Below, in pieces: positions 32,377 through 56,223 of a stretch of 64,000 bases of DNA. A program made the translations under genes and the position numbers. The notes beneath the pieces are model-generated. The model made no database searches, had not been told where the DNA came from, and was given only the letters and a program-made list of their open reading frames with translations. The stretch covers positions 62,001-126,000 of the forward strand of contig NZ_CAMLJQ010000009.1 in NCBI RefSeq assembly GCF_946480305.1, given 5' to 3'. How positions within the stretch are numbered: the stretch's first letter is position 1; every line of letters starts with the position of its first letter. Source of the stretch: an uncultured Caldimonas sp. (lineage in GTDB: Bacteria > Pseudomonadota > Gammaproteobacteria > Burkholderiales > Burkholderiaceae).

Positions 32377-32769
32377 GATGCGAAAGATCCGAATCGCGAT
32401 GCTGAGCGACAAGAAGGCACACACCAAGAGCCCTGCGATCAGGACGTCCATTACAAGCGTCCACACGTCTGCTGGGTATGTATCGGTTAAATGAATCAGA
32501 ACAATGAATTGGTAGACCCAATACAGACAAAACGCCGATCCAAAGAGGAAGCCAACTCCAAAAACACTTACGTAGCCCCGCATGCCAGTGGGTGCCAACT
32601 GCAAGCTCACCGCATGCTCATGAGCACGCGACACCAAATGCAGGTTGTGCGGCGTCCCTGACGCCACCTGATCCTTCGGCAGATGCCGGGCATGCTTCGC
32701 ACGATCGCTGACCGACAGCATGCCTGCTTCGCGCAAGTCATGCGCCGTCTTGTGGAGGTAGTCCGTCAT
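31621..32769 (-). CDS. DUF6708-type T6SS-associated membrane protein, copy 1
   Basis: A 382-residue paralogue of the gene just downstream. ATG 32769 overlaps the stop of the 1167-residue effector gene by 4 nt, so its synthesis is coupled to that of the effector. The layout is as in copy 2, but the segment at about residues 70-125 is different in sequence while still hydrophobic. Tight coupling to the effector and membrane location make it a candidate immunity protein; a chaperone or co-effector is the alternative. Confidence 0.78.
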   Translation of the reverse strand: MTDYLHKTAHDLREAGMLSVSDRAKHARHLPKDQVASGTPHNLHLVSRAHEHAVSLQLAPTGMRGYVSVFGVGFLFGSAFCLYWVYQFIVLIHLTDTYPADVWTLVMDVLIAGLLVCAFLSLSIAIRIFRIELFGPKDVPLVLNRKTRKVYKFVQQMPERDLSNPIRIFKYWLTAFQPWPPMVLIEYDWDCLEAEYFEETVLMGKVAKTLHVLQFYVKEQPDSNWVIGSFTLASPLLIGRSMAMDLWEFVRRYMEEDGPVMHKGDTPAPAYPSNLLQSAQAMLPGVWPLGVAALAWGAYNIWRHEHGDENIWYTAPAFMGSVMTLSIVFNWISHFFGRDIELPPQMLAGAGERLDLEALSKQANGTVPASPDTPRPANADTA

Positions 32770-37285: not shown

Positions 37286-40128
37286 GGGAAGAGCGCTCCG
37301 TCCAGGCCGTCTTGCATGCTGGTCTGCGGACACGGCGGCAGCGTCTTGGGCTGAGGCAAGGTGAGCGAAGTGCTGGCACTTTGCGGCCCCGTCAACTCCT
37401 TCATGCTCGCCTTGAACCTCGCCGCGCCCGGAGTGGTCAGCGTGATGTTGCCGCCCTCGAGGCGCAACGCCGAGCCGCCGGCCGTGAGCAGCACGTGATT
37501 GGGTGCGCCCATCTGGATGCTGTCGTGCGTGCTGGTCGCATCGATGCTCTTGTCGGCGGTGAGCTTGATCGCGTCTTTGTGTGCATGCACCGCCACATTG
37601 CCAGTGCCGGCGTGCAGCTTGATCCCCGTCTCCTGGTTCGGCTTGCTCGCGTTGCTCGCCTTGCCATACGTGAACCAGCTGATGCCGTTGGCCACCACCA
37701 GGCTCTTGTGACGTTGGGCGTTGGTGGTGAGATCCTGGCCTGCGACCAGGCTCAGGGTGCTGCCCGCGCTCCAGACGGCATGGGCCGGTGTGAAGACGCC
37801 GATGCCGGCCGGGGCGCTGACGAGCAGGTTGGGCTTGAGCCAGGCTTTGACGGAACCGGCTCCGCCGTCGACCTGGTTCGGGTCTCCCGTGCCGGCATGG
37901 CCGCGCTGGTCGGTCGCCTCGGTCTGTTCCTTCAGCGCCTGCTGCGCCTTAGGCGTCGGCAACTCCTTCGGCGCCGGCTCGTCCTTCAGCTGCGCCTTGT
38001 GCTTCTGCGCAGTGTCGATCAGCGTAGTGGTGAGTTCGGCCGCCTGCTGCAGTTGCTGCTCGGCCTCGCCGGTGTCGAGCTGGTGCGTGCTGCCGGTCGA
38101 GCCTGCAGCCCTGTTGTGCGCGCTCAGCAGCAGGCCTGCGCCAGCGCGCAAGGCGCCTTGCGCTTCCGTTTGCAGCTCGGCCCCGTGGCCACGGTCGTGC
38201 AGTCTTCGGTTGTCTTGCTGATGAATCGCGTGGCCGAGGTTGAGCTGGCTGCGCTTGGTGGTGGTGGCGAGCTGGATGCGGCCCTGGGTGGGGCTGTCGT
38301 CGAAGACGAGCTGGTTGTAGCCGCCGGCCCCGTGCTGGCTGGCTTGCAGCTCCTGGGTCTTGAAACCGGCCATCACGGCCGGGTGCTGGTGGCCCTGGTG
38401 CTTGCCGCTGGCCTGGGTGCCGGGGAACCAGGCCGGGGCGTTGCCGGTGGCGGTGGCGGCACCGCCTGCAACCTGGTTGCCTTGGGCATCCGGCTGGCCG
38501 GTGCCGTTGTAGACGCTGCCGATGCACACGGGGCGGTCGATGTCGCCGTCGAGATAGGCGATCAGGACTTCCTGGCCGAGCCGGGGGACGAAGTTGGCGC
38601 CCCAGTTGGCGCCGGCCACGGGGGTGGCCACGCGCACCCAGGTGCCGCTGCCGTCGCTGGCGGGGGCGTTGTCGGTGGTGGGGTGGGCCAGGCGGTGGCT
38701 GGCGTTGCCGCCGCGCTGCCAGTGGAACTGGACCTTGATGCGGTGGTCGCGGTCGGTGTGCACGGGGTGGCTCAAACCCACGACGATGGCGGTCTGGGTG
38801 CCGTGGATGGTGGGCCGGGCGTGGCGCACGGTGGCCTGCGGGCCGGCGGTGGGGGCGTGGGTGTCGTCGAGGGCGGCGGCACGCAGCGGCACGTCGGCCT
38901 GCAAGGCAGTGAGCTCGACGGTGTACAGCGGCTCGTCGCTGGCGTTGGCGGTTGCCGTGGCCAAGGGGCTGTGGCCGAGCAGCGCAGTGATGTGGGCCTG
39001 GTGGTCGGCGCTCAGGTTGTTGCGGGCGCGGTGCTTGAGCTTGAGGAGGGTGTAGCGGTCTTGCTCGCTGCCGTTGTGCAGGGGGTGGTCGCGCAGCGTG
39101 AAGGTGGTGCCGGGGGCGAAGCTGCGCACGGTGCCGGCGCCGCTGTGGAGCTGGGCGGCGGCGTCGAGCGCTTCTTGCTGGCGGCGCGCGAGGCGTTCGC
39201 CCTGGCGGCTGTCTTCGTAGGCGTAGAGGCCGGGCACGTCGGTGCAGCCGGCGCTGGGCAGCGGGTGGGTCACGACGCTCTGGGCGTTGACGGGGCGCAG
39301 GTGCACGCCGCGGTAGTCCCAGCTGGCGATGGCGACGCTTGCGGTGTGCACGCGGCGGCGGGCGCCCCAGGTGCGCAGGCTGTCTTCCTTGAGGGTGGCG
39401 CCGGGCTGGGTGTAGCGTACTTGTGCTTGCGCGTTGGGCGGGCAGGCGCCGTTGTGGTCGGCGATGACCAGGGTGTGGCTGCCGTAGGGGTCGCTGCGGG
39501 CGTCGCCCTGGTGTTCGAACCAGCAGAACAGGCCTTCTTCGCGCAGCAGGCGCTGCACGAAGGCGAGGTCGCTCTCCTGGTACTGGATGCACAGGGAGCG
39601 TTGGGGGTAGGCCTCGGGGTCGGCCAAATCCCAGCGCCAGGCGGGGGTCAGGCGGCCTTGGCCCTGGTAGGTGTTGAAGACTTCTTCGACGATCTCGATG
39701 ACGCTGCGGTGCTGGAACACTCGGCTGTCGCGGCGCCAGTCGAGGAAGGCGAGCCAGGGGCGCACGACGAGCCGGTAGCGGGCGAGGCCGCCGTCGGCAC
39801 CGAGCAGCGCGGCTTCGGTGAAGTGGCCGTGGAAGGGGCGCAGCTCGCTGCGGCTGGCCTGGGTGAGCAGCTCCAGCAGCACGGGCTGGCCGATGAGTTT
39901 CTTGAGTTGGATGTGGGTGTCGGCGCTCAGCGCGGTGAGCTGCAGGCAGAAGCCGCAGGCGTCGAGCGCGCTCTCGCCGCTGGGGGCGATGGATTCGTCG
40001 ATCTGCACGCGCTCGGCGAGCAGCACTTCAGGCCCGAGCGGGGTCGACAGGCGCAGCAGCCGGTCTTGCTGGGTGTAGCCGGAGACGATGGCCTGCGCGA
40101 CGGAGGCGAGTGAGAGGCGGTCGTTCAT
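37282..40128 (-). CDS. vgrG: Type VI secretion spike protein VgrG with DUF2345 extension
   Basis: A 948-residue protein. It has a gp27-like N-terminal part (about residues 1-430) and a gp5-like OB domain (about 450-560, with G-A-N-W-G-A-N-F-V-P-R-L-G-Q-E-V and a following Y-L-D-G-D). A long DUF2345-type beta-helix region runs to about 900, with spaced G-x-x-L, H-A-x-x and L-x-A repeats. It forms the tip of the T6SS needle. No catalytic extension is evident at the C-terminus. It heads the effector cassette. No core T6SS (tss) genes lie in this window, so this is an orphan vgrG island served by an apparatus encoded elsewhere. Confidence 0.95.
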   Translation of the reverse strand: MNDRLSLASVAQAIVSGYTQQDRLLRLSTPLGPEVLLAERVQIDESIAPSGESALDACGFCLQLTALSADTHIQLKKLIGQPVLLELLTQASRSELRPFHGHFTEAALLGADGGLARYRLVVRPWLAFLDWRRDSRVFQHRSVIEIVEEVFNTYQGQGRLTPAWRWDLADPEAYPQRSLCIQYQESDLAFVQRLLREEGLFCWFEHQGDARSDPYGSHTLVIADHNGACPPNAQAQVRYTQPGATLKEDSLRTWGARRRVHTASVAIASWDYRGVHLRPVNAQSVVTHPLPSAGCTDVPGLYAYEDSRQGERLARRQQEALDAAAQLHSGAGTVRSFAPGTTFTLRDHPLHNGSEQDRYTLLKLKHRARNNLSADHQAHITALLGHSPLATATANASDEPLYTVELTALQADVPLRAAALDDTHAPTAGPQATVRHARPTIHGTQTAIVVGLSHPVHTDRDHRIKVQFHWQRGGNASHRLAHPTTDNAPASDGSGTWVRVATPVAGANWGANFVPRLGQEVLIAYLDGDIDRPVCIGSVYNGTGQPDAQGNQVAGGAATATGNAPAWFPGTQASGKHQGHQHPAVMAGFKTQELQASQHGAGGYNQLVFDDSPTQGRIQLATTTKRSQLNLGHAIHQQDNRRLHDRGHGAELQTEAQGALRAGAGLLLSAHNRAAGSTGSTHQLDTGEAEQQLQQAAELTTTLIDTAQKHKAQLKDEPAPKELPTPKAQQALKEQTEATDQRGHAGTGDPNQVDGGAGSVKAWLKPNLLVSAPAGIGVFTPAHAVWSAGSTLSLVAGQDLTTNAQRHKSLVVANGISWFTYGKASNASKPNQETGIKLHAGTGNVAVHAHKDAIKLTADKSIDATSTHDSIQMGAPNHVLLTAGGSALRLEGGNITLTTPGAARFKASMKELTGPQSASTSLTLPQPKTLPPCPQTSMQDGLDGALFP

Positions 40129-43400: not shown

Positions 43401-44370
43401 GCAGCCGGCTCATCGGGGTGCGGCCATCGGGGCCCGGGGCGGCGATGTTGGTGCCGGGCGTCAGGCCCATGAGGTCGTCTGCATAGCGGTTGCCGGTGAT
43501 GCACCGGCCCGCAGGGTCGTGCGCGACCCAGATGGCCACCGGCGCGGCATCGAACAGCACCTGCAACTCGGCCACCCGGTGCTCGAGTTCGCTGTTCAGC
43601 TGGCGGATGCGCCGCTCCCATTCGCGGCGCTCGGTCGTGTCGCGGCCCGCGCCGTGCAGTCGCACGACCCGGCCGCGTTCGTCGCAGATCGGGCGCACCT
43701 TGAAGTGCAGCCACACGCTGCGCCCGTCCTTGGTGACGTGGCGCATCTCCGACTCCACCTCTTCGCCCGCGAGCACGCGTTGCATGCATTCGCGGGCCAG
43801 CGGTTTTTCTTCCGGCGCCACCACGGCGCGCCAGCCGCCGCCTTCCATCGCCTCATCGAGCGTGAAGCCGAGCACCTTGCTGAAGCCCTGCGTCACTGAT
43901 TCGGTGACGATGCGGCCGTCGGGCAGCACGCGGGCGTCGAAGGCGAAATCGGTGGTGAGGTCGGCGATCGAGCGGTGGAAGGACTCGCTCAGTTCCAGCT
44001 TCTGCTGCTGAGCTTCCAGCCGGCGTCGGGTGGCGTGCAACGCGCCGCAGACAACGCTGGTGGACAACCCGATCGCTACGAACAACGCCACGGCCAATGC
44101 GTTGTCGAGGCCCTCCACCGCCATCGAGTGCCGCGGCGGCACGAACAGGTACACGAACAGCATCGTGGACAACGCCGTCGCCAGCATTCCAGGCCGCACG
44201 CCGCCGCACGCCGCGGCGGCCAGCACCGCCAGCACGGCCGGCAGGAACACCAGGTCTCCTTGCGCCCACGCCTCCATGCCCACCGCCAAGCCCGCGGCAG
44301 CCGCCGTGGCGACGATGGCCACGCCATACGCACCGGCCTCGCGGGCTCGGTCTCCCTTGAACACACTCAT
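40417..44370 (-). CDS. Hybrid sensor histidine kinase with DUF4118 membrane domain and multiple PAS domains
   Basis: A 1317-residue protein. Four membrane helices in residues 8-110 (KdpD-like DUF4118: Y-L-F-V-P-P-R-H-S) are followed by about six PAS/PAC units, each with a W-x-x-x-P or G-R-x-x-x-x-N-x-A motif. Then comes a HisKA domain with His 949 (A-H-E-L-R-N-P-L), a HATPase domain (D-N-G-M-G-I; G-L-G-I-G-L) and a C-terminal receiver (V-V-D-D-N, L-L-D-I-G-M-P, V-K-P). The signal is unknown. No DNA-binding partner lies beside it. Confidence 0.92.
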   Translation of the reverse strand: MSVFKGDRAREAGAYGVAIVATAAAAGLAVGMEAWAQGDLVFLPAVLAVLAAAACGGVRPGMLATALSTMLFVYLFVPPRHSMAVEGLDNALAVALFVAIGLSTSVVCGALHATRRRLEAQQQKLELSESFHRSIADLTTDFAFDARVLPDGRIVTESVTQGFSKVLGFTLDEAMEGGGWRAVVAPEEKPLARECMQRVLAGEEVESEMRHVTKDGRSVWLHFKVRPICDERGRVVRLHGAGRDTTERREWERRIRQLNSELEHRVAELQVLFDAAPVAIWVAHDPAGRCITGNRYADDLMGLTPGTNIAAPGPDGRTPMSRLLRGGSPVDAGELPLQQAARLGVPVLGSEMEIVVPGRPSAWVMGNAVPLFDRDREVRGALGVFVDMTQRKWVEAAVWQGREQLRLVADHVPVLIAHCNAQGLYKFVNRAYAQRFGLHPKDLVGRHMQEVVGEEAYASFLPYIDAVLAGVQVEFEVQIPHPSGGLQHLHCAYAPEIDATEHVVGLVGVMLNISDRKLAELAVEAARTEAERRAREAEEAKALLQTIFDNLPEGIVWVGGPPDYPVLANSRFGSELIGVPAGTEDDDAVHGAYAVLAPDGSRPLATEELPLFRASRHGERVNNEELLVQRADGTRVSVLVDAAPIRDANGHIIGAVNCWRDITERKRAEAAQHRSAERFRSLVLATTAIVYTTDAQGSFVAPQPSWQAYTGQPWEAHRGWGWLDALHPEDSTRVQQAWRRALDTGDPYEIEARLWHAGSQSWRYVHGRAVPVHGSAGDVREWIATCSDIDDRQQALEALRQSEERFRLMVESAKDYAIFTLDVEGRVTTWNSGGRHLLGYEDAEIVGRDAAILYTPEDVAEGAFEREMEKALMDGQAEDERWHVRRDGSRFYASGLLMPLRAGGPQRGFLKIMRDVTEAMQSRATLERQASALQEADQRKDEFLATLAHELRNPLAPLRNCLEIMRLAGGDARAVERARRVMERQLGQMVRLIDDLLDVSRISRGKIKLRMARVELAAALRDAVETSRPLIEEAGHRLQVELPEQALFVDADHTRLAQVVANLLNNAAKYTEAGGRIVLRAEREGDAARIVVQDNGMGIAEPLLPRLFEMFSQGDRSIERAKGGLGIGLALVKRLVDLHGGSVEARSAGPGQGSEFVVHLPLAPVPAASFTPQGLPTQAVPGQRRVLVVDDNKDAALSLAVMLQLLGHETRVAHDGVEALELAGGFSPDIVLLDIGMPRLNGYETAQLMREQPWGRRALIVALTGWGQEEDRRRSREAGFDQHLVKPVEPAALERLLHEDIGDAEPVGAESTSERHI

Positions 44371-44529
44371 CTCGCGGCGCCCCTGTGTTTTCTCCCTGAG
44401 GTCGAGGCGACATCAACGGGACGCGCAGCCTCTCCGGGTTCGCCGGCGTCCCCACCCGGCGCAGATCATGCGGCGGCTGTCACGCGAGTTTGGTAAGGAA
44501 CTGCTGCAGAAAATGCAGGCGCGCAAGAA

Positions 44530-44550
44530 GGGCCGCGCGACGCGCGGCCC
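44530..44550 (-). terminator. Perfect GC hairpin, probable terminator of the 77-residue gene
   Basis: GGGCCGCGCG-A-CGCGCGGCCC is a perfect 10-bp palindrome with a one-base centre, 50 bp after the stop of the 44601-44834 gene. On the minus strand it is followed by TTCTT, a weak U-tract. Confidence 0.55.
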
Positions 44551-44600
44551 CGAACCGCTGGCCGGATGCAAGCGGCAGTAACAAGACAGGAAACAGCTGC

Positions 44601-44885
<285 letters not shown>

Positions 44886-45020
44886 TCAATCGACTTTTTT
44901 CTCCGTCGCGCATCGGTGCGGGTCTCCAGCCCCTGCGGGGAGGCCTCGGGGTGAATGCGGATGCACCATCACGAAGCGCCCGCCATACTCCCTTTTCGTC
45001 CTTCTACCTGGGAGGAGACC

Positions 45021-46616
45021 ATGTCGAGAAGCACACTTGTCGGCGCGTTGTCGGCCTTGTTCATAGGCGGGTTTTCCTGGGTGAAGGCAGCTGACGCTCC
45101 GACGCGCCCGTCATCCTCCCCTCCAGAGAGCACTGCTGTCACCGTGGTCCGTCCCAGCGAGGCGACCGTGCCACGCGTGCTATCGCCTTGCACTCCGGGG
45201 TCGTGCCTGTTTGCGGGACAGAAAGTGACGGTGATCGCGACGAAGAGCGCGATCAGCATCGCCTTGCTCGAAGTCAAGGAAGAGTTCGAGGCGGCCACCG
45301 GCGCGCAGCTCGAAATCGTCCGCCTGCCGGGGGTGGAGCACTATCCAAGCATCATCACCGACCTCACCAACCGCACCGGGAAATACGATGCCTCGATCGC
45401 CGGCGGCTGGTGGGTGGGCGACATGGTTGCCGGCGACCACCTGCGGTCGTACGACGACCTCTACGACGACCCTCGCTTCCCGAAGTGGAACTTCGACGAC
45501 GTGCTGCCCGGACCGCGCGGGCTCCTGACCTACAGCGGCAAGAAGTACATGGTGGCCTACGACCATGACGGGCAGGTTCTCTACTACCGCCGCGACCTGT
45601 TGAACGCCCCCCAGCATCAGGCGGGGTTCAAGCGGAAATACGGCTACCCGCTCGCCGTGCCACAGACCTGGAAACAGCTGCGTGACGCACTCGAATATTT
45701 CCACGGGCAGGATCTCAACGGCGACGGCACCGCCGACCACGGCATCGTGCTCGCGCTCAAGCCCGGCAGCCAGGGGATGTTCAACTACATGACGCTGTCG
45801 GGCTCTTTCGTGATAGGCCCCGCCAATCCCAAGCTGTACTGGTTCGACCCGCAGACGATGAAGCCGCTGATCACGAGCCCCGGACACGTGCGGGCACTCG
45901 AGCAGTTCATCGAGTTGGTCAAGTTCGGGCCGCGCGAAATGCTGACCTGGGACCACGGACGCGGCTGGGACGAGTTTCTCGCGGGCCGTTCCGCGTTCGC
46001 CTTGAGCTGGGGCGATCTCGGCGCGCTGGCGCAGCAGCCCGGCAGCCGCGTCAAGGGCAAGACCGGTGCCGCGCCGGTCCCCGGGACACACGAGTACTTC
46101 GACCTCACCCGCCAACGCTGGGTCAAGACAAGTACGTTGAACCGTGTGGGCAACACAACCGGCGCGTCGTGGGCTGGCGTCATCTCGAAGTACTCGAAGG
46201 TACCCGAGGCCACCTACTTCCTGCTGGCGCTGCTGGCGACGAACGAGAAATCGAAGGTCTATGCCGCACGCGGCTCCGACGGCGTCGACCCCGGCCGCAA
46301 GTTCCACTTCCTGCCGCCCGATGGCACGGGAAGCCCCGAGCCGTACCTGCAAGCCGGCTGGGACGAGGCGGACGTGCGCGACTACCTCAGCGCTTTCCAC
46401 CAGGTGTTCAGCGACAGGCAGCAGTTTCCCTATCTGCGCATTCCGGGCACCTACAGCTACTGGCTGGCCCTGGACCTCCACCTCGTCGAAGCCGCAGGCG
46501 GTCAACTGAGTGCGGCCGCGGCACTCCAGGCGGCGGCGGCTGATTTCGAGGAGATCACCATCCGGCTCGGCCGTGCTCGTCAACGCGCGGCCTATCGAGC
46601 CTCGCTCGGCTTCTGA
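45021..46616 (+). CDS. Periplasmic extracellular solute-binding protein (family 1-like), kinase-linked
   Basis: A 531-residue exported protein. ATG 45021 follows GGAGGAG. The signal peptide ends near V-K-A-A-D (residue 23-24). The mature part has the fold pattern of ABC-type sugar-binding proteins ([22 protein letters not shown]; a late Tyr-rich lobe), and [10 protein letters not shown] is an EF-hand-like loop that may bind calcium. No permease or ATPase genes are adjacent. The hybrid kinase follows after 7 bp, so it probably serves as a ligand-sensing partner and not a transport component. Confidence 0.85.
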
Positions 46617-46623
46617 CCCCCCC

Positions 46624-49458
46624 ATGCGCCGTATTCCCGGCCTGGCCGCCCTGGGCATCGGCGCCAAGCTCAACCTGAGCTTCGGTGTCCTCATCGGCCT
46701 GACGCTCCTGGTCGTTGCGCTGGCCATCGTCGGCGGACGCGACGCCACGCGGGAGATCGACCTCAGCGCCGCCGCGAGGGCCCCCGCCGTACTGGCCTCG
46801 GCACAGGCGCACGAAGCCCTGCTGCGCATGCAACTCCATTTGCGGGGCTACCTTGTGCTTTCCGACCAGGACGACGTGAGCCGGTACGAGGCAGCCAAGC
46901 AGGAGTTCGAGCGGGCGTTGGCCTCCTTGCAACAGCTATCTACCAGCTGGTCGACCGACGACCGAGGTCTGGTCGAAGCCCTGACCCGGAACTACGAGCG
47001 CTGGAAGAGCCTGCCGCCCCATCTCTTTTCGCTGCACCAGGATCACTTGCGCAATCGTCCTGCGCTGCGACTGTCCAGCATCGAGGTGCAGGACAGGCGT
47101 GTTCGCGTGATGGCCGAGCTGGAACAGATGATCGCGTTGCAGCGCACGAGAACCGACGATCCTCGGAACAGAGAGACGCTCGCCGCCCTCCTGTCGCTGC
47201 AAAGCTCGTTCGACGCGCTCACCACCAACGTGATGGCCTTCGGCGCATCGGGCGAGAACAACTTCCGCCTCGCATACGGCCCGCAACTGGTGACCAACGC
47301 GGCACTGTGGGACGCGGTGAACGCTGCGCGCCCGTGGCTCACCAGGAAGCAGCTGCAACACCTCGATCGCATCGCGGCACTGCGCATCGAGCTGACCAGC
47401 CTCGCGCTGGAGGTGCGCACCCTGATCGAGGGCGACCGCGCCTATGAGGATCTGTTTCTGTACCGCACGCAGGTGGCCCCGCAGGCTGCCGGCCTGGTGG
47501 ACCTGCTGCACGAGGTGACGGCCCGCCAGCAGACGCAGCTGCAGGCGGAATTGCTGCGGGCCAGGGACAGCCTGGCGCGGTCGCGCTCGCAGACCCTCGC
47601 CGGCGGCCTGCTCGCCCTGGCGACGGGGCTGGTGTTGGCCATCGTCCTGCGCCGCGGCATCGTCGGCCCCGTGCAGCGCCTGACGCAGGTGGCCGCGCGC
47701 ATTGCTTCCGGCGATCTGCAGGCGCGGGCGAAGGTCGAATCGAGCGACGAAACCGGCAGGCTGGCCGACAGCTTCAACACCATGACGGCCCGGCTGCTCG
47801 AGACGATCGCTCACCTGGAGTCGGCCTACGCCGAGGCGCGACAAGCCAGGACCGTGGCCGAACGGGCCAACCAGGCCAAGAGCAGCTTCCTTGCCAACAT
47901 GAGCCACGAGATCCGCACGCCGATGAATGCGATCCTCGGCATGTCGCACCTGGCCTTGCAAAGCGGACTCAACCCGAAGCAGCAGAACTACGTGCAGAAA
48001 GTGCATATCGCCGCGAAGTCGCTGCTGGGCGTGATCAACGACATCCTCGATTTTTCCAAGATCGAAGCCGGCAAGCTCGACATCGAGTCGATCCCGTTCA
48101 ACCTGGTCGACGTGCTCGACAACACGGTCAACGTGCTGAGCATGAGAGCCGACGAAAAGGGCCTGGAGCTTGTGATGGACCTCGCCCCCGATCTGCCGCC
48201 GGCCTTGATGGGCGACCCGTCTCGCCTGGGCCAGGTGCTGCTGAACCTGGGGAACAACGCCGTCAAGTTCACCGAGCGAGGCGAGGTCGTGCTGAGCGTG
48301 AGGCTGATGGAGCGAGACGACGCATCGGCGCGCCTGTTGTTCGAGATGCGCGACACCGGCATCGGCATGAGCGAAGAGTTGCAGCAGCGGCTGTTTCAAC
48401 CCTTCACGCAAGCGGACGCATCGACCAGTCGACGGTATGGCGGTACCGGTCTGGGACTGGCGATCAGCCGCCACCTGGTGCAATTGATGGGCGGCAGCTT
48501 CGGGGTCGAGAGCTCGCCGGGCCAGGGCAGCCGCTTCTTCTTCGAGCTGCCGTTGGGGCTGCAAACCACACCGGCCGGGCCCCAGCGCGACACGCACTCA
48601 GTGCAGGGCATGCGCGTGCTGATCGCGGACGACAACGCCACCGCCCGCGAGGTGCTGGCCGCGATGAGCCGCACGCTCGGCATGCAGGCGGACGTGGCCG
48701 CAGACGGCCACGAGGCCGTGCGCCGGGTCGAGCAGGCCGATGCGGACGACGAACCGTACCACTTGCTGGTGCTGGACTGGAAGATGCCTGGCATGGACGG
48801 CGTGACCTGCGCGCAGATGCTCGCGCAACACGATGCCTTGCGCCACCCCGCGCCGGTGGTGATGATGGCCACCGCGTTCGGACGCGAGGAAGTGCGGCAA
48901 CTCCTCGCCGACCGCGGTGTCGCCGTGGCCGCGCTGCTGACCAAGCCGGTGGTTGCCTCCGCCCTGCTCGACGCATGCGCGACGACGCTAGGACACGCAC
49001 CGGTCGCCGCCAGCAACGAGTCCTGGGGCCGCCGCCGGCGCATGCGCAACGGCCTTGGCGCCAAGCTGGCCGGTGCGCGTGTCCTGCTGGTCGAGGACAA
49101 CGCGTTCAACCAGGAACTCGCCACCGAGCTGCTTGCCGGTGCCGGCATCGAAGTGCGCCTCGCCGCCGACGGAGAGCAGGCGCTGAAGACACTGGAGCAT
49201 GAATCGTTCGATGCCGTGCTGATGGACTGCCAGATGCCGGTGATGGACGGCTACGAGGCCACCCGGTTGCTGCGCCAGCGGCGCGAGCTGCAGGCCCTCC
49301 CTGTGATCGCGATGACGGCGAATGCCATGACGGGCGACCGGGAAGCCGTGCTGGCGGCCGGCATGAACGACCACATCGCGAAGCCGATCGCGATCGACGA
49401 AATGTTCGCGACACTGGCCCGCTGGATCAAGCCCAGGCAAGGACAGCCGCCGGAGTAG
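46624..49458 (+). CDS. Hybrid sensor histidine kinase with two receiver domains
   Basis: A 944-residue protein. It has a membrane helix (about residues 12-38), a large helical periplasmic domain (about 40-320), a second helix (about 323-342), HAMP, a HisKA domain with His 428 in [10 protein letters not shown], and HATPase (D-T-G-I-G-M; G-T-G-L-G-L). Two receivers follow (from about 660: I-A-D-D-N, L-D-W-K-M-P; from about 818: V-E-D-N, M-D-C-Q-M-P). No HPt domain is seen, so phosphotransfer must go to a separate protein. The gene starts 7 bp after the binding-protein gene, implying joint function in sensing. Confidence 0.93.
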
Positions 49459-49496
49459 GCGGTACTGCCGCAGCCCAAGCGGCACCGTACGAAGGC

Positions 49497-50429
49497 TTAC
49501 TCCACCTTCTTCTTCACGAGCGCGTCGAAGGTTTCCTGGTTCACCGGCGAACGCAGGCGGCCGTTGTTGAGCAGCAGCAACACGGTGTCGACGTTGTCTT
49601 CCTGCACGACGATGCGGCCGTCCTGCACCACCAGGCCCCATTGCTCCTTCTCGTTGAGTTCGAGCAGGCGTTGCATGAAGCGCCGGTCGCGGTAGTAGCC
49701 GTTGCGGTCGAGCGCGGAGATGCGGCGCAGCCGCGGCAGGCTGGTGCCCACCGCATCGCGCAACGGTGCGACGTCGACGAAGATGCCCGCCTCATCGAAC
49801 TCCTGCAGCACCGCGTCGCGCACGCGCTCCATGCCGAGCCGGAAGTTCAGCGCGCTTTCGAACTGCCGCTTGTTGCAGATGAACAGCGCGCCGCCGTGTG
49901 CAAAGAAGTCGAAGCCGCTCGCCAGCGTGAACACCTGGCGCTCTTCGAGGTCGATCAGCATGTGGTCCTGCCACAGCAGGTTGCGCAGCCCCTTCACGCG
50001 GCGGGTGCTGCTTTGCGCGGCGGTTTTCTTCACCGCATCGAGCACGGCTTCCTTGTGCTGCAGGCGCACCACGTAGCACCAGGAGTTGAGCAAGTCGTCG
50101 AGCGATTGCGCGCGCGGCGCATCGAGGCCCTTGTCGATCTTCTTCGCGATCAGCGGGTAGTCGGTCTCTTCGGCGGGCAGCGTCAGCACGCTGTCGTCCT
50201 GGTCCTCGGAGATGAACTCATACGGTTCGGTGCGATGCGGGCTCGCCGCCAGCGCGGTCACCTCCTCGTGCAACCGCTGTTGCAGGCGCGTGTCGATGTC
50301 CACCCCCGTCACGTCGTAGCGTGCCCGCCGGTCGGCCAGCCGGCGCTTGACGATCCACAGGCTGGCCGTGGCGGCGGACCAGTCCGCCTGCTGCAAGGCT
50401 CTCAGCGGCGCGGAGCTGTCGTCTTTCAT
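49497..50429 (-). CDS. kwaB: DUF4868 protein, KwaB-like (Kiwa anti-phage system)
   Basis: A 310-residue protein. ATG 50429 overlaps the stop of the membrane-protein gene (ATGA). The C-terminal half shows the DUF4868 pattern: I-D-L-E-E-R-Q-V-F, G-F-D-F-F, L-F-I-C-N-K-R-Q-F-E-S-A-L-N-F, then a long helix and a basic stretch R-R-I-S-A-L-D-R. E. coli KwaB is of similar length and carries DUF4868. In the known Kiwa system KwaB works with a membrane partner, KwaA, to block phage replication and binds DNA. The gene order here (membrane gene then DUF4868 gene) matches. Assignment rests on motif and context; I could not run a profile search. Confidence 0.78.
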   Translation of the reverse strand: MKDDSSAPLRALQQADWSAATASLWIVKRRLADRRARYDVTGVDIDTRLQQRLHEEVTALAASPHRTEPYEFISEDQDDSVLTLPAEETDYPLIAKKIDKGLDAPRAQSLDDLLNSWCYVVRLQHKEAVLDAVKKTAAQSSTRRVKGLRNLLWQDHMLIDLEERQVFTLASGFDFFAHGGALFICNKRQFESALNFRLGMERVRDAVLQEFDEAGIFVDVAPLRDAVGTSLPRLRRISALDRNGYYRDRRFMQRLLELNEKEQWGLVVQDGRIVVQEDNVDTVLLLLNNGRLRSPVNQETFDALVKKKVE

Positions 50430-50974
50430 GCCTCGCGCTCCACGCGCGTGACGAAGTAGAGGAAGTTCGACAGCCGCGTGACGTGGCAGCGGTCGCCGGG
50501 CCTGAACTCGTCGCGCGACAGCAGCAGCCCCTGGCGCTCGTGCGCGCCTTCCTTGAAGGTGCTGTCGTACAAGCCGTAGCCCACCAAGCCGAGGATGGGG
50601 TTCACGAGGATGCTGCGCGTGCGGTGGGCCAGCGAGAACATCATCGCCAGGAACAGCCCCAGGCAGAGCAGCGTGCGCCAGTCTCCGAGGTTGAAGTTGT
50701 AGAACGAGATCATGTAGGGCACGGTGTACGCGAACAGCTCGCCGGACTTGTTGCCGACCTTGGTCACCAGCACGGGCAGCCCGTCGGGGATGGTGCGCAC
50801 CACCAGGCCGAGCGCCAGCAGGCACAGCACCGCGCTCAACGCGATCACGCCGGCAAACACCGGGTGTTGCGGATGGGCGGTGACTGGGTCGAGATCCTTG
50901 ATGATGACGATGACCGCGAGCGGAAAGTACGAGCCCGCGAAGATCAGCAGCGACGGCCACAGGCGCAGCTTCAT
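50426..50974 (-). CDS. KwaA-like four-helix membrane protein (Kiwa anti-phage system)
   Basis: A 182-residue protein with four hydrophobic segments (about residues 5-25, 39-62, 93-112 and 121-140). Between helices 2 and 3 is a conserved-looking F-A-Y-T-V-P-Y-M-I-S-F-Y-N-F motif. The soluble C-terminus is about 40 residues. Size and topology fit KwaA, the membrane sensor of Kiwa, and it directly precedes and overlaps the DUF4868 gene. It begins 14 bp after the protease-nuclease gene. As a short membrane protein its assignment depends mainly on context. Confidence 0.7.
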   Translation of the reverse strand: MKLRLWPSLLIFAGSYFPLAVIVIIKDLDPVTAHPQHPVFAGVIALSAVLCLLALGLVVRTIPDGLPVLVTKVGNKSGELFAYTVPYMISFYNFNLGDWRTLLCLGLFLAMMFSLAHRTRSILVNPILGLVGYGLYDSTFKEGAHERQGLLLSRDEFRPGDRCHVTRLSNFLYFVTRVEREA

Positions 50975-50988
50975 GCGGCAACGCCTGG

Positions 50989-52902
50989 TCAACGTTTGCG
51001 GCGCGGGAAGCGCACGTCTTCGGGCCGTCGGATCTCGATGCCCGGCATCCAGCGCGGCACGCGCTCCGGGCCGATGCGATCGGCATAACGGTCGGCCTCG
51101 CGCAGTGCCTTGCCGAAGTGCAGGCCAGTGAGCTGCTCGATGCGCACGAGCGGCACCTGGTAGGTCTTGAAGCGCCCGTAATGGAACGCCTCGGCCACCA
51201 TCGTCTCCTGCGACAGCAGGTAGGCCGCGCAGGCGAGCTGTTGCGTGTCGGCCTCCACCAGCACGGCCACCTTCCAGAAGCGCATGGGCACCTGCACGCC
51301 GAGCACCACCGGGTCCGCATCGGTGAACACCGGGCCGGTGAACACGCTCACCTTCAGGTCCAGCGCGTCGGCGTTGTCGAGCACGTAGTCTTCGAGCTCC
51401 AGCCATTCCTTCTGGTTGAGCCCCGGGTGCTGGGGCGCCGCGTTGGTGTAGTGGAAGCTGTCTTCGTTGGCGCGCGCAGCCTCGTCCGCCGCGCCCCATA
51501 CCGGGTCTTCGCGCCGCACCATGTGACCGCGGTCGAAGCCGGTGGGGCCGTAGAACTCGCCGCCCACCTGTTGCTCGCGCGCGATGCGCGAATCGAAGAA
51601 CCAGGTCTGCCCCTTGCGTGACAGCTTCATGCGCGCGGTGCCGTCGATGTTGACGGCCGTCACCGCAGGCAGCCGACGTTGCTCGTGCATGCGCACGCTG
51701 AAGTGGGTGTAGTCGAGCCGCCACGGGTCCTTGCCGTCGCCCACCTTCAGCAAGCCCTCGCCCTTCGGCGGTTTGGGCAGCGGTACCTGCGGGCCGAGAA
51801 AGCGCTCGTCGTAGCCGGCGGCCGTGTAGGCCTTGCGGGGGCGCAGCTTCTCGGCCAATGGCTCCAGCGACGCGCCGGGCACGGTGGTGCGGGCGCGCGC
51901 GACGTGCAGCATCTCGAACACCGTGTCGATGCGCACGGCGTAGTTCGCCTTGCGATGCGCGCCGGCGTAGTGCAACCCCAGCGCCTTGCCGGTTTCCAGA
52001 TCGAGGATCACGCTGCCCGAGTTGCCGCCCAGCGTGGTCGCGTCGTGCTCGAAGTACCACTGGTCGCGTTCGGCGGCCATCACCTCGCCGGGGGCGAAGC
52101 GTTTCACGTCGTAGATGTCGCCGAAGATGCGGTCCATCAGGCGCGAGTCGCTGCGGCTGTCGCGTGCCGGGTAGCCCACCACCGCCATGAAGCGGCGCTT
52201 GCGCAATGCCTTGGCGAGTGCCTCCACCGGCTGGATCGGCGGCGGCAGCGCCGCGCCGTCGGCGCCGGGCACCACACGAAGAAAGGCCACGTCGGGCGAG
52301 CCTTCGCTGTGCGGCGCAATGTAGAGCACACGCTCGATGCGGAACTCCGCCGCCACCACCGAGCGGTATTCCTCATGAAAGTCGATGCGTGGCAGCACCT
52401 CGGCCCCCGCCTGGTTGCGGATGAAGACGTAGCCCAGCCCCGTGGCATCGCGCCGCGAGAATTCGTCGGCCACGTGGCGGTTGGTCACGATCACGTCCTC
52501 CTCGATCATCCAGCCGGTGCCCACCCAGTCCAGCTCCGGGTGCCCGACGAGCTCGACACGCCCCACCGAGCGCAAGGCCGGTTCGAAGGCGCTCGCATGC
52601 TTCGCAATGCGGCGCGACAGCACGTCGGACGACGGCAAGGTCACCCGGTGGTTCTCGACCAGCAGCACAGGCCGTGCCTGCGCGCGCACGATCGCCTCGG
52701 AGAGCGGACGGCTCTCGAACTCGTCGCCGGAGGGGGCTTCGTCGAGCAGGGAAACCAGCGTGCGGGTGTCGACGTCCCACTGGCTGCCGAGTTCGTTGTC
52801 TGCGGCGCGGCGCTGCAGTTCGCAGCGCAACTCCTTGTCGCCGAGGATGGAGGTCATCGTGCGCCGGCGGGCGCTGCGTTCGAGTTCGCTGTCGGTCGGC
52901 AT
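50989..52902 (-). CDS. Trypsin-like protease fused to NUC1-type DNA/RNA non-specific endonuclease
   Basis: A 637-residue protein. Residues 1-110 are an uncharacterised charged region. A trypsin-fold domain (about 115-335) has a complete triad: His 143 (V-T-N-R-H-V-A), Asp 204 (S-P-D-V-A-F-L) and Ser 295 (G-G-N-S-G-S). A NUC1 domain (about 390-605) has the D-R-G-H motif (457-460, catalytic His 460) and metal-binding Asn 487 (N-A-A-P-Q). No signal peptide is seen, so a toxic nuclease would stay in the cytoplasm and must be controlled. It is first in an operon with KwaA- and KwaB-like genes. The protease may activate or release the nuclease on infection, which is inference. Confidence 0.85.
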   Translation of the reverse strand: MPTDSELERSARRRTMTSILGDKELRCELQRRAADNELGSQWDVDTRTLVSLLDEAPSGDEFESRPLSEAIVRAQARPVLLVENHRVTLPSSDVLSRRIAKHASAFEPALRSVGRVELVGHPELDWVGTGWMIEEDVIVTNRHVADEFSRRDATGLGYVFIRNQAGAEVLPRIDFHEEYRSVVAAEFRIERVLYIAPHSEGSPDVAFLRVVPGADGAALPPPIQPVEALAKALRKRRFMAVVGYPARDSRSDSRLMDRIFGDIYDVKRFAPGEVMAAERDQWYFEHDATTLGGNSGSVILDLETGKALGLHYAGAHRKANYAVRIDTVFEMLHVARARTTVPGASLEPLAEKLRPRKAYTAAGYDERFLGPQVPLPKPPKGEGLLKVGDGKDPWRLDYTHFSVRMHEQRRLPAVTAVNIDGTARMKLSRKGQTWFFDSRIAREQQVGGEFYGPTGFDRGHMVRREDPVWGAADEAARANEDSFHYTNAAPQHPGLNQKEWLELEDYVLDNADALDLKVSVFTGPVFTDADPVVLGVQVPMRFWKVAVLVEADTQQLACAAYLLSQETMVAEAFHYGRFKTYQVPLVRIEQLTGLHFGKALREADRYADRIGPERVPRWMPGIEIRRPEDVRFPRRKR

Positions 52903-52972
52903 GAAAAGGCGCGAGGGTGATGGCGCAAGAGCGTAGCGCCACGGCCGCCGCGCAGTGGTAACAAGGGGCGCT

Positions 52973-53317
52973 TCAGCGGTGGTGGTCGCGACTGTCCTGC
53001 GGTGCCTGTTCGCGCTCGTGCATGCCGTAGTCGCGCAGCACCGAAGCCACGCGCAGGCGGTAATCGCGGAACACGCCGCCCCGCCCCGCCGCCTGCGCCA
53101 TGCGGTGTGCTTCGAGCTGCCGCCATTGCTGCACCGCGGCCTCGTCGCGGAAGAACGACAGCGACAGCATCTTGCCCGGCTCGGTGAGGCTCTCGAAGCG
53201 CTCGACGGAGATGAAGCCGTCGACTTGCGCCAGCTCGCTGCGCAACCTGGCGGCGATGTTGAGGTAGTGGTCGCGGCGGCCGTCCTGTGGCCAGACTTCG
53301 AAGATGATCGCGATCAT
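52973..53317 (-). CDS. Antibiotic biosynthesis monooxygenase (ABM) domain protein
   Basis: A 114-residue dimeric ferredoxin-like-fold protein: M-I-A-I-I-F-E-V-W-P start, G-F-I-S-V-E-R-F-E-S-L core, then S-L-S-F-F-R-D-E and Q-Q-W-R-Q-L-E-A-H. ABM proteins are cofactor-free monooxygenases, haem-degrading enzymes or simple binding modules. ATG 53317 overlaps the P450 stop (ATGA), so the two proteins are probably made together and act on the same compound. Confidence 0.88.
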   Translation of the reverse strand: MIAIIFEVWPQDGRRDHYLNIAARLRSELAQVDGFISVERFESLTEPGKMLSLSFFRDEAAVQQWRQLEAHRMAQAAGRGGVFRDYRLRVASVLRDYGMHEREQAPQDSRDHHR

Positions 53318-54453
53318 GCGGGGGTCTCCTGATGGAAGTGAGGAATGCGTGCGTTGACCGAGGGGCGGTATCGAGGATGAAGCTGCCACTCGCGCACGAT
53401 GTCGATCACGGCCTCGTCGACACACGACATGGCCCCTTGCGCGAGCTTGGCAGCAAGCATGGTCCCAGGGCATTGGTGCCTGCCCGCCCCGAAGCCGTGC
53501 TGCCGACGCGCGCCGCGCTGCAGCATGAAGCGCTCGGCGTGCGGCTGCGCGCTGTCATCGCGGTTGGCAGAAGCGAGCAGCACCAGCACCGCCTCGTGCG
53601 CACCGATGCGCTGGCCGAGCAGTTCGATCGCCTCGTCGTGCGCGAAGCGGCGGGTGTTCTGGATCGACGGATCGTGGCGCGCAACCTCGTCGATGGCATC
53701 GACCAGCAAGGCGACGTCGTCGCGCGTCATCGCGAACAGACCCGACTCGCGCGCAAACGCCACCAGCGTGTTGCCCAGCAGCCCCGCGGTGGCCTCGCAG
53801 GTCTGCGACAGCAGCCCCACGAGGTTGGCGGCCCAGATGTCGCGCGGCACCCCGTGGGGCACCGGGCCGGCCCAGGCGCCGATACCGCCATCGAAGCACT
53901 GCAGCAGGGCCTGGGCGGCATCGCCTGCCGCGGCCAGCTGCGAGGCACTGCCGAGCGGCGACAGGCCCGCGACGAAGGAGTGCGCGTGCGCGGCCACCTG
54001 CGCGAGGGCGGCATCCGGCACGCCGAGCGATTCGGCCATGGCGAGCAGCGGCACCTGGAAGATCCAGCGGTCCAAGGCCCGCGCATCACGAGGCAGCATC
54101 TGCTGCGCGTGCCGCCGTGCGTTCCCGGGTACCGCCTGGGCCGGCAAGGCCGCCAGGTGGGCCGTCAATGCCCGACGAGCGGCGGCATGGGCGGGGCCGT
54201 CGTTCATGCGCGCCAGCTTCGAGAACACGGTACCTGCCGGCGTGCCCGCAATGCCGCGGGGCACGGGCTCGGTCTGCGGGCGCACGTACAACCCCGGGTG
54301 CGCCAGCGCAGCCTCCACTGCCTCGGCACTGCTCGCCACCCAAAGCTTCAGCGGCTCGTTCCAGCGGCACGGCGACGCGGCACGCAACGAGGCGTAGTAC
54401 GGATACGGGTCCGCCGCCGTGACGGCGGCAACGGGGTCGGTGATGTGCTGCAT
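53314..54453 (-). CDS. Cytochrome P450-like protein
   Basis: A 379-residue soluble protein with the haem-thiolate motif H-G-F-G-A-G-R-H-Q-C-P-G (Cys 328). A possible E-x-x-R is in D-E-V-A-R. The I-helix threonine region is less canonical (L-S-Q-T-C-E-A-T-A-G), so catalytic competence as a standard P450 is likely but not certain. It is shorter than many bacterial P450s. No ferredoxin or reductase gene is adjacent. It is divergent, across 71 bp, from an ArsR-type regulator that probably controls it. Confidence 0.85.
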   Translation of the reverse strand: MQHITDPVAAVTAADPYPYYASLRAASPCRWNEPLKLWVASSAEAVEAALAHPGLYVRPQTEPVPRGIAGTPAGTVFSKLARMNDGPAHAAARRALTAHLAALPAQAVPGNARRHAQQMLPRDARALDRWIFQVPLLAMAESLGVPDAALAQVAAHAHSFVAGLSPLGSASQLAAAGDAAQALLQCFDGGIGAWAGPVPHGVPRDIWAANLVGLLSQTCEATAGLLGNTLVAFARESGLFAMTRDDVALLVDAIDEVARHDPSIQNTRRFAHDEAIELLGQRIGAHEAVLVLLASANRDDSAQPHAERFMLQRGARRQHGFGAGRHQCPGTMLAAKLAQGAMSCVDEAVIDIVREWQLHPRYRPSVNARIPHFHQETPA

Positions 54454-54524
54454 GCGGTGTGTCTCGTGAGCGATGCCCGCAGTCTGCTACGCTGCGCGGA
54501 TCACGCTTCCATGGAGAACGAAAT

Positions 54525-55205
54525 ATGGATGCAGACGCGGGCATCGCTGCCATCGCCTCCGCCATTGCCGAGCCTGCACGTGCGCGCATGCTGTGCGCGC
54601 TGCTCGACGGACGCGCACGCACCGCCACCGAGCTGTCCGCCGTGGGCGAGGTGGCAGCCTCCACCGCGAGCGCGCACCTCGCGCGGCTGACGGAGCAACG
54701 GCTGGTCGACTGCGTACCGCAAGGCAAGCACCGCTACTACCAGCTCGCGGGTGCCGATGTGGCGCGGGCACTGGAAGCGCTGCTCGTGGTGGCGGGCGTG
54801 CCTCGCCCCAGCTTCGAACCCAGCACACCGCCCGCGCTGCGCAACGCGCGCACCTGCTACGACCACATGGCGGGCGAGGTGGCCGTCGCCCTGCTGGCAC
54901 AGATGAAGCGGGAGCGCTGGTTGACCACCCATGGCGGCGAGTACCGGCTGAGCGCACAGGGCGAACAGGCCCTGGCGAACTGGGGCGTGGATATCGACGC
55001 GACCCGGCGCCTGCGCCGCAAGTTCGCATGCGACTGCCTGGACTGGAGCGAGCGCCGCCCTCACCTTGGCGGTGCGCTGGGTGCCGCACTGCTCGGCACC
55101 GCGCTGCGGCGCAAGTGGCTGCAACAGGACCTCGACGGCCGTGGGCTGCAGGTCACGGCCAAGGGGCGCCGCGAGTGGCTGGTGCCGCAAGGCATCGGGA
55201 GCTGA
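54525..55205 (+). CDS. ArsR-family transcriptional regulator
   Basis: A 226-residue protein starting at ATG 54525 (GGAG eight bases before). The N-terminal winged helix has the ArsR pattern L-S-A-V-G-E-V-A-A-S-T-A-S-A-H-L-A-R-L. A C-terminal domain of about 120 residues includes C-D-C-L-D-W-S-E-R-R, seen in ArsR proteins often placed beside P450 or monooxygenase genes. The shared 71-bp intergenic region with the P450 gene suggests repression of both transcripts until an inducer appears. Confidence 0.88.
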   Translation: MDADAGIAAIASAIAEPARARMLCALLDGRARTATELSAVGEVAASTASAHLARLTEQRLVDCVPQGKHRYYQLAGADVARALEALLVVAGVPRPSFEPSTPPALRNARTCYDHMAGEVAVALLAQMKRERWLTTHGGEYRLSAQGEQALANWGVDIDATRRLRRKFACDCLDWSERRPHLGGALGAALLGTALRRKWLQQDLDGRGLQVTAKGRREWLVPQGIGS

Positions 55206-55305
55206 GTGTCTTGTGGGCGGGTGTTCGCACTGCAGCGTGCATTGCTGCCCAAGGGAAGTCGATCCGGAGGGACGCGGAGTGTCGGCACCGGCCCCCCTCA
55301 CACCC

Positions 55306-56223
55306 TCAACTGAAGCCCGGCTGGCGCTGCGCTATCAGCCTGTCGAGCATTTCGAGGAACACCTTGGTGCGCGCCGGCATCAGCCGACGGCCGGGCAGCA
55401 CCGCCCACGCCGGCGACTCGGGCAGGCACCACTGCGGCAGCACCCGTACGAGGCGCCCCGCGCGCTCCGGCGGGCCGGCCACCACATCGGGCGCGGCCGC
55501 GATGCCGGTGCCTTCCAGCGCCAGGCGCACCAGCAACTCCGGCGAGTTGGCCGAGGCACGCGGCGGCGCCAGCCCCACCCAGCGTTGCTCGCCCTGCAGC
55601 AACACCCAGGGCACCGGCTCGCCGCTGCGGGCTCTCAGGGGCAGCCCGGCATGCTGCAACAGGTCGGCCGGCTCACGCGGTGTGCCGTGCAACGCCAGGT
55701 AGTTCGGCGCGGCATACAGGCCCCAGGTGTGCGTGAACAGTTTGCGTGCGGTGAGCGTGGCGTCGTCGGGCAGGTCGCCCATGCGGATCGCAAGATCGAA
55801 GTTCTCGCCGATCAGGTCCACCCGGCGGGCCGAGAGATCCACCTCCAGCGAGATCGCCGGGTAGCGGACCAGGAAGTCCGCCATGAAACGGGCGATGTCC
55901 AGCCCGGCGAAGTCGCCCGGCATCGACACGCGCAGGCGCCCGCTCGGCTGCGCCTGCCGGTGCAGCACCAGTGAGGCTGCGGCGTCCACCTCGGAAGCCA
56001 CCTGCCGCGCATGGTCGAGCAGCGCGAAGCCGAAATCCGTGAGGCTCAGCTTGCGGGTGGTGCGCGACAGCAGGCGCTCGCCGAGTTGCTTTTCCAGCGC
56101 CGAGATGCGGCGCGAGACGGTGCTTTTCGGCAGCCCCACCCGCTCGGCTGCCCGGGTAAAGCTGCCGGTTTCAGCCACGCGGGCGAACAGCAGCAGGTCG
56201 TTGGGATCGAGGTTCAGCTCCAT
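55306..56223 (-). CDS. LysR-family transcriptional regulator of the azoR/pirin operon
   Basis: A 305-residue protein with an N-terminal LysR helix-turn-helix ([19 protein letters not shown]) and the substrate-binding-like domain of the CrgA/AaeR-type group (L-R-V-S-M-P-G-D-F). It is divergent from azoR. An inverted repeat covers its start codon (56222-56243), so autorepression together with control of azoR is likely. Confidence 0.9.

What the first reader, a model, noticed from the sequence alone, without database searches (positions are those of the whole stretch)
49497..52902. Kiwa-like anti-phage operon carrying an extra trypsin-NUC1 endonuclease
Three minus-strand genes are tightly packed: a cytoplasmic trypsin-fold/NUC1 nuclease fusion with complete active sites (His143/Asp204/Ser295; D-R-G-H at 457-460 and Asn487), a four-helix membrane protein 14 bp later, and a DUF4868 protein overlapping it by ATGA. 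Kiwa (KwaA membrane protein plus DUF4868 KwaB) is an established two-gene anti-phage system. I know of no described Kiwa type with a protease-nuclease as an integral third gene. A plausible logic, as inference: KwaA-like senses phage at the membrane, KwaB-like transmits, and protease-gated non-specific nuclease destroys nucleic acid, giving abortive defence.
Basis: partly seen in the sequence, partly recalled or inferred. Interest (0 to 1): 0.92.

Follow-up and report, generated by a model that had tools for sequence, protein, structure and literature searches.

The report
Kiwa operon with added protease-nuclease gene
A bacterial anti-virus gene pair called Kiwa, which is thought to grip viral DNA without cutting it, here has a third gene joined to it whose protein carries a protein-cutting and a DNA/RNA-cutting domain, and a few related bacteria have kept the three genes together.

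Summary
Window 52902-49497 (minus strand) encodes a probably cytoplasmic trypsin-NUC1 fusion (637 aa, named catalytic residues present), a four-helix KwaA (PADLOC PDLC00215, 4e-52) and KwaB (PF16162, 2e-25). Among the nine genomes of that genus the trio is all-or-none, and one has an empty site. Elsewhere the fusion was not seen: 2 of 34 kwaAB loci from the first scans have it (both in this lineage), 0 of 17 further regions, 0 of 6 plasmid loci. So this is one lineage at one chromosomal spot, not a widespread Kiwa type. The fusion belongs to a known large family (NucA-trypsin 'System 3'; LypC). Best reading: a Kiwa variant that gained a LypC-like protease-nuclease, giving a DNA-binding membrane sentinel a cutting arm. 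Functional coupling is inferred, not shown; the main rival is an independent effector sharing the operon. New variant of a known kind.

The parts
50989..52902 (-). trypsin-NUC1 fusion gene (637 aa), first gene of the operon
   Evidence: PF13365 1.8e-13 and PF01223 1.5e-47; homologues in four further trio loci
51973..52521 (-). trypsin-like domain, residues 128-310; catalytic His143, Asp204, Ser295
   Evidence: Ser295 in 87 of 87 family rows, His143 and Asp204 in 86 of 87 with one gap each; region 70-325 also matches a PADLOC 'nacht' model (PDLC03010, 8.2e-20); solved kin by profile include V8-type glutamyl endopeptidases
51721..51900 (-). linker between protease and nuclease, residues 335-394; candidate self-cleavage region
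   Evidence: least conserved of six regions in the seven-member clade (mean column identity 0.75; protease 0.91, nuclease 0.89). Cleavage is inference
51100..51720 (-). NUC1 (Endonuclease_NS) domain, residues 395-601; DRGH 457-460, Asn487
   Evidence: His460 and Asn487 in 87 of 87 rows; solved kin NucA-type nuclease and Endonuclease G
50426..50974 (-). kwaA, four-helix membrane protein (182 aa)
   Evidence: PADLOC PDLC00215 4.2e-52; PDB KwaA 9o0i and 9mrg, E about 6e-4; helices
49497..50429 (-). kwaB (310 aa), overlaps kwaA by ATGA
   Evidence: PF16162 2e-25; PDLC00235 6.3e-117; no PDB match by single sequence, PDB KwaB 9o0i/9mrx by profile, weak E 0.008-0.010

Best explanation
A three-gene Kiwa variant. 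KwaA (membrane) and KwaB (DNA-binding) form the usual Kiwa sentinel at the inner membrane, and a cytoplasmic trypsin-NUC1 protein of the LypC / NucA-trypsin family has been added as the first gene of the operon. Proposed working: KwaA recruits the complex to the site where a phage injects DNA; KwaB binds that DNA; crowding of the fusion protein there switches on its trypsin domain, which cleaves its own linker (or a partner) and frees the NUC1 domain to degrade nucleic acid close to the injection site, or throughout the cell. Shown here: gene content, active sites, tight same-strand packing in five genomes, all-or-none presence in the genus, purifying selection. Taken from published Kiwa work: membrane sensing and non-cutting DNA binding. 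Inferred: that the fusion is triggered by KwaA/KwaB, that the protease gates the nuclease, and the target.
For: Domain and family hits. Same order in window, L001, L002, L088 and L089; fusion-to-kwaA spacing +14, -4, +56, -4, +8 bp, so the end of the fusion gene overlaps the kwaA start in two of five genomes. dN/dS 0.16-0.33 for the fusion, 0.12-0.32 for kwaA, 0.21-0.34 for kwaB. In the nine genomes of the genus, the four with the fusion are the four with this KwaB beside it; a fifth has a different kwaAB and no fusion; four have neither (adjacency). Empty site in L110. The seven rows P0003-P0009 form one clade, SH-aLRT 100; kwaAB linkage is seen for four of the seven. Protease-activated nucleases are established in Hachiman and AVAST, with a different nuclease (PMC12799240). 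Published KwaB binds but does not cut DNA (PMC12904381), so a nuclease would add a missing function.
Against: All five loci share one chromosomal position, so the association counts as a single event. Relatives of the fusion outside the clade can stand alone (Pseudomonas aeruginosa, Paracoccus), so it may not need KwaAB. In LypC the protease residue was needed for lysis but the nuclease residues were dispensable (PMC13236601), which weakens a nuclease-kills model. No adaptor domain was recognised in the fusion by Pfam. No structure or complex could be modelled. No sigma-70-like promoter was found in 49380-53200, so co-transcription is inferred from spacing alone. kwaA and kwaB fall below the NCBIfam cut-offs, so even the Kiwa part may behave differently from the studied one.
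Confidence: 0.5

Rival explanations
1. Two independent defence modules share one operon: a self-sufficient trypsin-NUC1 effector with its own trigger, and an ordinary two-gene Kiwa. They are co-expressed and co-inherited but do not act together.
For: Family members stand alone in P. aeruginosa and Paracoccus and occur with unrelated partners elsewhere: EAD5-trypsin beside MoxR (L075), a trypsin plus AAA_16 ATPase pair (L076), an S8 peptidase (L077). Related kwaAB pairs occur without it, and some sit beside other defence genes: of ten neighbouring proteins scanned from eight loci, three are SNF2-type helicases, one a DNA methylase, one a reverse transcriptase and one an S8 peptidase.
Against: Overlap with kwaA in two of five genomes. 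The neighbours of the trio that I scanned (antibiotic monooxygenase, P450, ArsR-type regulator, solute-binding protein) are not defence genes. No clade member whose surroundings I saw lacks kwaAB.
Confidence: 0.33
2. The protease is the working effector: on Kiwa activation it cuts a host or phage protein (or KwaA/KwaB), and the NUC1 domain is a structural or secondary part.
For: LypC S296A abolished lysis while H471A and N505A did not, and removing the domain destabilised the protein (PMC13236601).
Against: The key NUC1 residues are conserved in the clade and in the wider family (His460 and Asn487 in 87 of 87 rows). The nuclease domain is about as conserved in the clade as the protease (0.89 against 0.91).
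Confidence: 0.12
3. The trio is not a defence system but a lineage-specific stress or housekeeping operon.
For: Conserved chromosomal position in the lineage and no tRNA or Rfam element in 44000-56000.
Against: KwaA and KwaB match defence-family models strongly; presence/absence with an empty site is usual for defence genes (general knowledge).
Confidence: 0.05

Closest known systems
Kiwa (KwaA + KwaB), as studied
   Same: Adjacent four-helix KwaA and KwaB; matches to KwaA and KwaB models and to solved KwaA
   Different: Far below NCBIfam equivalog cut-offs; has a third, upstream protease-nuclease gene; described Kiwa is two-component and its KwaB does not cut DNA
LypC of LypABC (CARD-NLR-like system, Caulobacter)
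   Same: Trypsin then endonuclease in one protein; catalytic Ser296/His471/Asn505 against Ser295/His460/Asn487 here (PMC13236601; compared by published numbering, no alignment made)
   Different: No LypA-like (CARD-trypsin-ATPase) or LypB-like (NLR) gene directly beside the trio; the partners are KwaA and KwaB
System 3, NucA-trypsin conflict system (predicted, Kaur et al. 2020)
   Same: NucA-type nuclease fused to trypsin, proposed to be activated by proteolysis (PMC7159879 section 32)
   Different: Described with STAND NTPases, S8 peptidases and EAD1, mostly in alphaproteobacteria; Kiwa is not mentioned in the section read
Protease-gated nucleases of Hachiman (HamM) and AVAST (Tuck et al. 2025)
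   Different: There the nuclease is a separate MBL-fold protein and the protease is fused to the core defence gene; the word Kiwa does not occur in that main text

Membership tests
Kiwa | KwaB-family protein | tested here: met
   PF16162 2e-25, over its cut-off; PDLC00235 6.3e-117
Kiwa | KwaA-family membrane protein directly upstream of kwaB | tested here: met
   PDLC00215 4.2e-52; four helices, one weak; 4-bp overlap
Kiwa | NCBIfam equivalog cut-offs for KwaA and KwaB | tested here: not met
   52.2 of 100 bits and 22 of 200 bits: a divergent branch rather than NCBI's equivalog
Kiwa | KwaA-KwaB membrane supercomplex; KwaB binds phage DNA | not testable with these tools
   structure prediction was off; only weak profile similarity to solved KwaB (E 0.008)
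Kiwa | Protection against phage | not testable with these tools
   needs plaque assays
LypC / NucA-trypsin (System 3) protein | Trypsin and NucA-type nuclease in one polypeptide with intact active sites | tested here: met
LypABC operon | CARD-trypsin-ATPase and NLR-like partner genes | tested here: not met
   the genes beside the fusion are kwaA on one side and an antibiotic-monooxygenase and P450 gene on the other; a LypABC-like layout was seen for a relative, L076
Tuck et al. nuclease-protease pair | Separate MBL-fold nuclease gene upstream of a protease fused to a core defence gene | tested here: not met
   the nuclease is NUC1 (PF01223) and is fused to the protease

The most novel reading that the evidence does not exclude
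Kiwa can be a modular sensor: in this lineage the KwaA/KwaB lattice, which elsewhere only binds incoming phage DNA, directly activates a self-contained trypsin-NUC1 zymogen at the injection site. That would be the first Kiwa with a catalytic effector and the first NucA-trypsin protein controlled by a membrane sensor instead of a STAND/NLR ATPase.
Probability: 0.4. Interest if true: 0.75.

Novelty: new variant of a known kind. Interest (0 to 1): 0.55.

Why it matters
Published Kiwa senses phage at the membrane and blocks its DNA without cutting it, and how KwaA senses infection is unknown (PMC12904381). A natural Kiwa with a linked protease-nuclease would give that sensor an enzymatic read-out (cleavage of the fusion protein, DNA loss), making activation directly measurable. 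It would also add Kiwa to the defence systems that have recruited a protease-nuclease effector, by a different nuclease fold and architecture from the published Hachiman and AVAST cases.

Tried and rejected
Looked for the fusion gene in viral contigs with patterns from the window's own protein, which reach close kin only (four stretches, none a relative), and in phage records (4 records, matches in the nuclease region covering 23-31% of the query); KwaB in phage records (no match). Looked for a tRNA or Rfam element near the site (none). Looked for a promoter (none; 3 terminator-like sites against 2.1 expected by shuffling, all on the other strand). PHROGs gave one unnamed family for KwaA, a nuclease and an unnamed family for the fusion, none for KwaB. 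Tested whether the sister proteins P0010, P0011 and P0014 are Kiwa-linked: their contig lengths do not occur in the KwaA and KwaB lists, and a search of 399 genomes of the order with P0010 at E <= 1e-40 found only the C. mangrovi trio (60%) and two partial matches (37-38%). Inconclusive, since those contigs are short and the genomes a sample. Considered a second, independent Kiwa-protease pairing: a plasmid of Paraburkholderia terrae has a separate Trypsin_2 gene 145 bp after kwaB (L151), a single case. The S8 peptidase upstream of kwaA in L023 is IetS next to IetA by PADLOC, a known separate pair. Rejected: artefact (the gene order recurs in five genomes) and a widespread Kiwa subtype.

Searches of the held papers for a described Kiwa with a protease or nuclease third gene showed none in the titles and abstract starts listed, but only part of the matching papers was listed each time (30 of 120, 25 of 203, 25 of 44, 12 of 18, 15 of 2,313). 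The primary Kiwa paper (PMC12348683) is not held, so its text and supplements were not seen.
Full report
What is there. On the minus strand, 52902-50989 encodes a 637-residue protein with Trypsin_2 (PF13365, residues 128-310, 1.8e-13) and Endonuclease_NS (PF01223, residues 395-601, 1.5e-47). Its protease region (70-325) also matches a PADLOC 'nacht' model (8.2e-20). H143, D204, S295, D457-R-G-H460 and N487 are present and nearly invariant in an 87-row family alignment (S295, D457, G459, H460 and N487 in 87 of 87; H143 and D204 in 86 of 87 with one gap each; R458 is Lys in 55). No hydrophobic segment over the threshold shows, so it is probably cytoplasmic. Fourteen bases on, 50974-50426 encodes a 182-residue protein with four candidate helices, the last weak, matching PADLOC KwaA (PDLC00215, 4.2e-52) and, weakly, solved KwaA (about 6e-4). 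It overlaps by ATGA the 310-residue protein at 50429-49497, which matches PF16162 KwaB (2e-25), PADLOC KwaB (6.3e-117) and, by a profile of 23 sequences, solved KwaB only weakly (0.008). Both fall well below NCBIfam's equivalog cut-offs: a divergent Kiwa branch.

How widespread is the trio? A profile of KwaB relatives scanned over one genome per species gave 34 loci, and viral contigs gave one more. kwaA lies directly before kwaB in 34 of these 35; the remaining one, L032, is cut by the contig end. The fusion gene is present in 2 of the 34: Caldimonas mangrovi (L001) and Aquabacterium sp. A7-Y (L002). Genomes behind 32 of the 34 genome loci were searched whole: a full-length fusion was found only in those same two; five others have only partial matches in the nuclease region. 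For wider sampling, KwaB was sought in 369 genomes of the class of G001 (8 with a match, 7 over the cut-off) and 296 of the phylum of G012, Labilibaculum (12 with a match). I fetched 17 of these 20 regions, leaving out two already held (G001, G012) and one under the cut-off (G722). KwaA is recognised in 16 of the 17 and the fusion in none. Of nine plasmid records with KwaB I looked at six; none has the fusion. Some contigs end close to kwaA (for example L006), so 'absent' means absent from the sequence held.

The lineage that has it. In the genus of G001, nine genomes are held. Four carry the full fusion (G001, G002, G429, G431) and the same four have this KwaB type beside it. G025 (C. caldifontis, L030) has a different kwaAB (36% KwaB identity to the window) and no fusion. 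The other four (G321, G383, G430, G161) have neither, though G430 has two partial nuclease matches. G429 and G431 match the contig lengths given for Caldimonas brevitalea and Eleftheria terrae. With the window this makes five trio genomes. Both flanks are syntenic with the window in the other four. In G161 (L110), sequence homologous to window 44598-44837 is followed after 77 bases by sequence homologous to 52979-53380: an empty site lacking the trio, and also the solute-binding and sensor-kinase genes that lie between in the window. L110 also lacks the kinase at 40.4-44.4 kb. L111, L112 and L114 keep the right flank from about 55.3 kb; L113 keeps that and a short piece of the left flank (44616-44771) with 1.75 kb of unmatched sequence between. 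So the trio is all-or-none in this group, but because position is shared it counts as one event, and whether the empty site is original or a loss was not resolved.

Signs of an operon under selection. Fusion-to-kwaA spacing is +14 (window), -4 (C. mangrovi), +56 (A7-Y), -4 (C. brevitalea) and +8 (Eleftheria); kwaA-to-kwaB is -4 in four and +2 in one (starts chosen as the codon nearest the homologous position). Pairwise dN/dS (Nei-Gojobori with Jukes-Cantor, my script) is 0.16-0.33 for the fusion, 0.12-0.32 for kwaA and 0.21-0.34 for kwaB over ten genome pairs. No sigma-70-like promoter was found in the region, so co-transcription rests on spacing.

Where the fusion comes from. The family is large: 3334 hits among 7998 scored candidates, 120 listed. 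In a tree of 87 of the listed rows plus the window, P0003-P0009 form one clade (SH-aLRT 100) whose sister is P0010, P0011 and P0014 (99; joint 100) (quick search); FastTree gives the joint stem a length of 0.388. kwaAB linkage is seen for four of the seven clade members (window, C. mangrovi, C. brevitalea, A7-Y); P0004, P0005 and P0008 come from contigs I could not open. In the family of G001, 76 of 399 sampled genomes had some match, but only G001 itself over the full length at high identity; most others match the nuclease region alone. Of six plasmid relatives whose surroundings I read (of 192 records with a match), two stand alone (Pseudomonas aeruginosa L072, Paracoccus L073), one follows a trypsin gene and an AAA_16 ATPase gene (Paraburkholderia L076; a LypABC-like layout), one lies beside an EAD5-trypsin gene and MoxR (L075), one follows an S8 peptidase (L077) and one precedes unassigned, PAS and CHAT-domain genes (L074). 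The fusion is thus a portable part. Contig lengths suggest that the nearest relatives of this kwaAB outside the lineage (KwaA P0149 70% and KwaB P0131 54%, both on a 32,593-base contig) lack a close fusion, because none of the 120 listed has that contig length. That favours gain of the fusion in this lineage over loss elsewhere, but is indirect.

What is known. Kaur et al. 2020 described NucA-trypsin proteins as 'System 3', predicted to be activated by a proteolytic cascade (PMC7159879, passages and section 32). LypC of Caulobacter has the same layout; S296A abolished lysis while H471A and N505A did not (PMC13236601, passages). Tuck et al. 2025 showed protease-gated MBL-fold nucleases in Hachiman and AVAST (PMC12799240, outline, part 1 of 6 and passages); the word Kiwa does not occur in that main text. 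A 2026 review says KwaA senses phage at the membrane and KwaB binds injected DNA without cutting it (PMC12904381, passages and one section). An S. thermophilus study, citing a preprint, says KwaB can act without KwaA (PMC11514479, passages). The primary Kiwa paper is not held. My searches of the held open-licence papers showed no Kiwa with a protease or nuclease third gene among the listed part of the results.

Mechanism. The best-supported reading is a Kiwa that has gained a catalytic arm: sensing and DNA capture by KwaA/KwaB, then activation of the trypsin domain by crowding and release of NUC1 by cleavage in the linker. The first half rests on published Kiwa work and homology, the second on analogy with HamM/HamAB. 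The main rival, two independent modules in one operon, is nearly as well served by the data because relatives of the fusion occur without Kiwa and kwaAB pairs occur without the fusion. The LypC result warns that the protease, not the nuclease, may be what matters. Among the solved proteases matched by profile are V8-type glutamyl endopeptidases, which hints at, but does not show, cleavage after acidic residues.

Verdict. A new variant of a known kind, of interest because it would give a membrane sensor an enzymatic read-out.

Noticed in passing
window 30441-40128 (-): A type VI secretion set: VgrG (37282-40128), a VasX_N-domain protein (32766-36269) and two neighbouring DUF6708 genes (30441-31580, 31621-32769), possibly a duplicated immunity gene.
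   Followed up: no
window 44955-49458 (+): A solute-binding protein gene overlapping a hybrid sensor kinase gene lies between the trio and its left flank; it is missing at this place in L001, L002, L088, L089 and the empty site L110, so it looks like a later insertion in the window's lineage.
   Followed up: partly
L151 5397-7836 (Paraburkholderia terrae plasmid pPT70): kwaA-kwaB followed after 145 bp by a separate same-strand Trypsin_2 protease gene whose best PADLOC matches are LmuA, RT-Protease and HamA models: a possible second Kiwa-protease pairing, one case only.
   Followed up: partly
L003, L004, L012, L022, L023: Related kwaAB pairs lie beside other defence-type genes: DrmD-like helicases (L003, L004; a DNA methylase too in L003), an SNF2 helicase (L012), an AbiP2-like reverse transcriptase (L022) and the IetAS pair (L023).
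   Followed up: partly
L076 1884-8788 (Paraburkholderia phenoliruptrix plasmid): Trypsin protein (603 aa), AAA_16 ATPase (1031 aa) and trypsin-NUC1 fusion in a row: looks like a LypABC system.
   Followed up: partly
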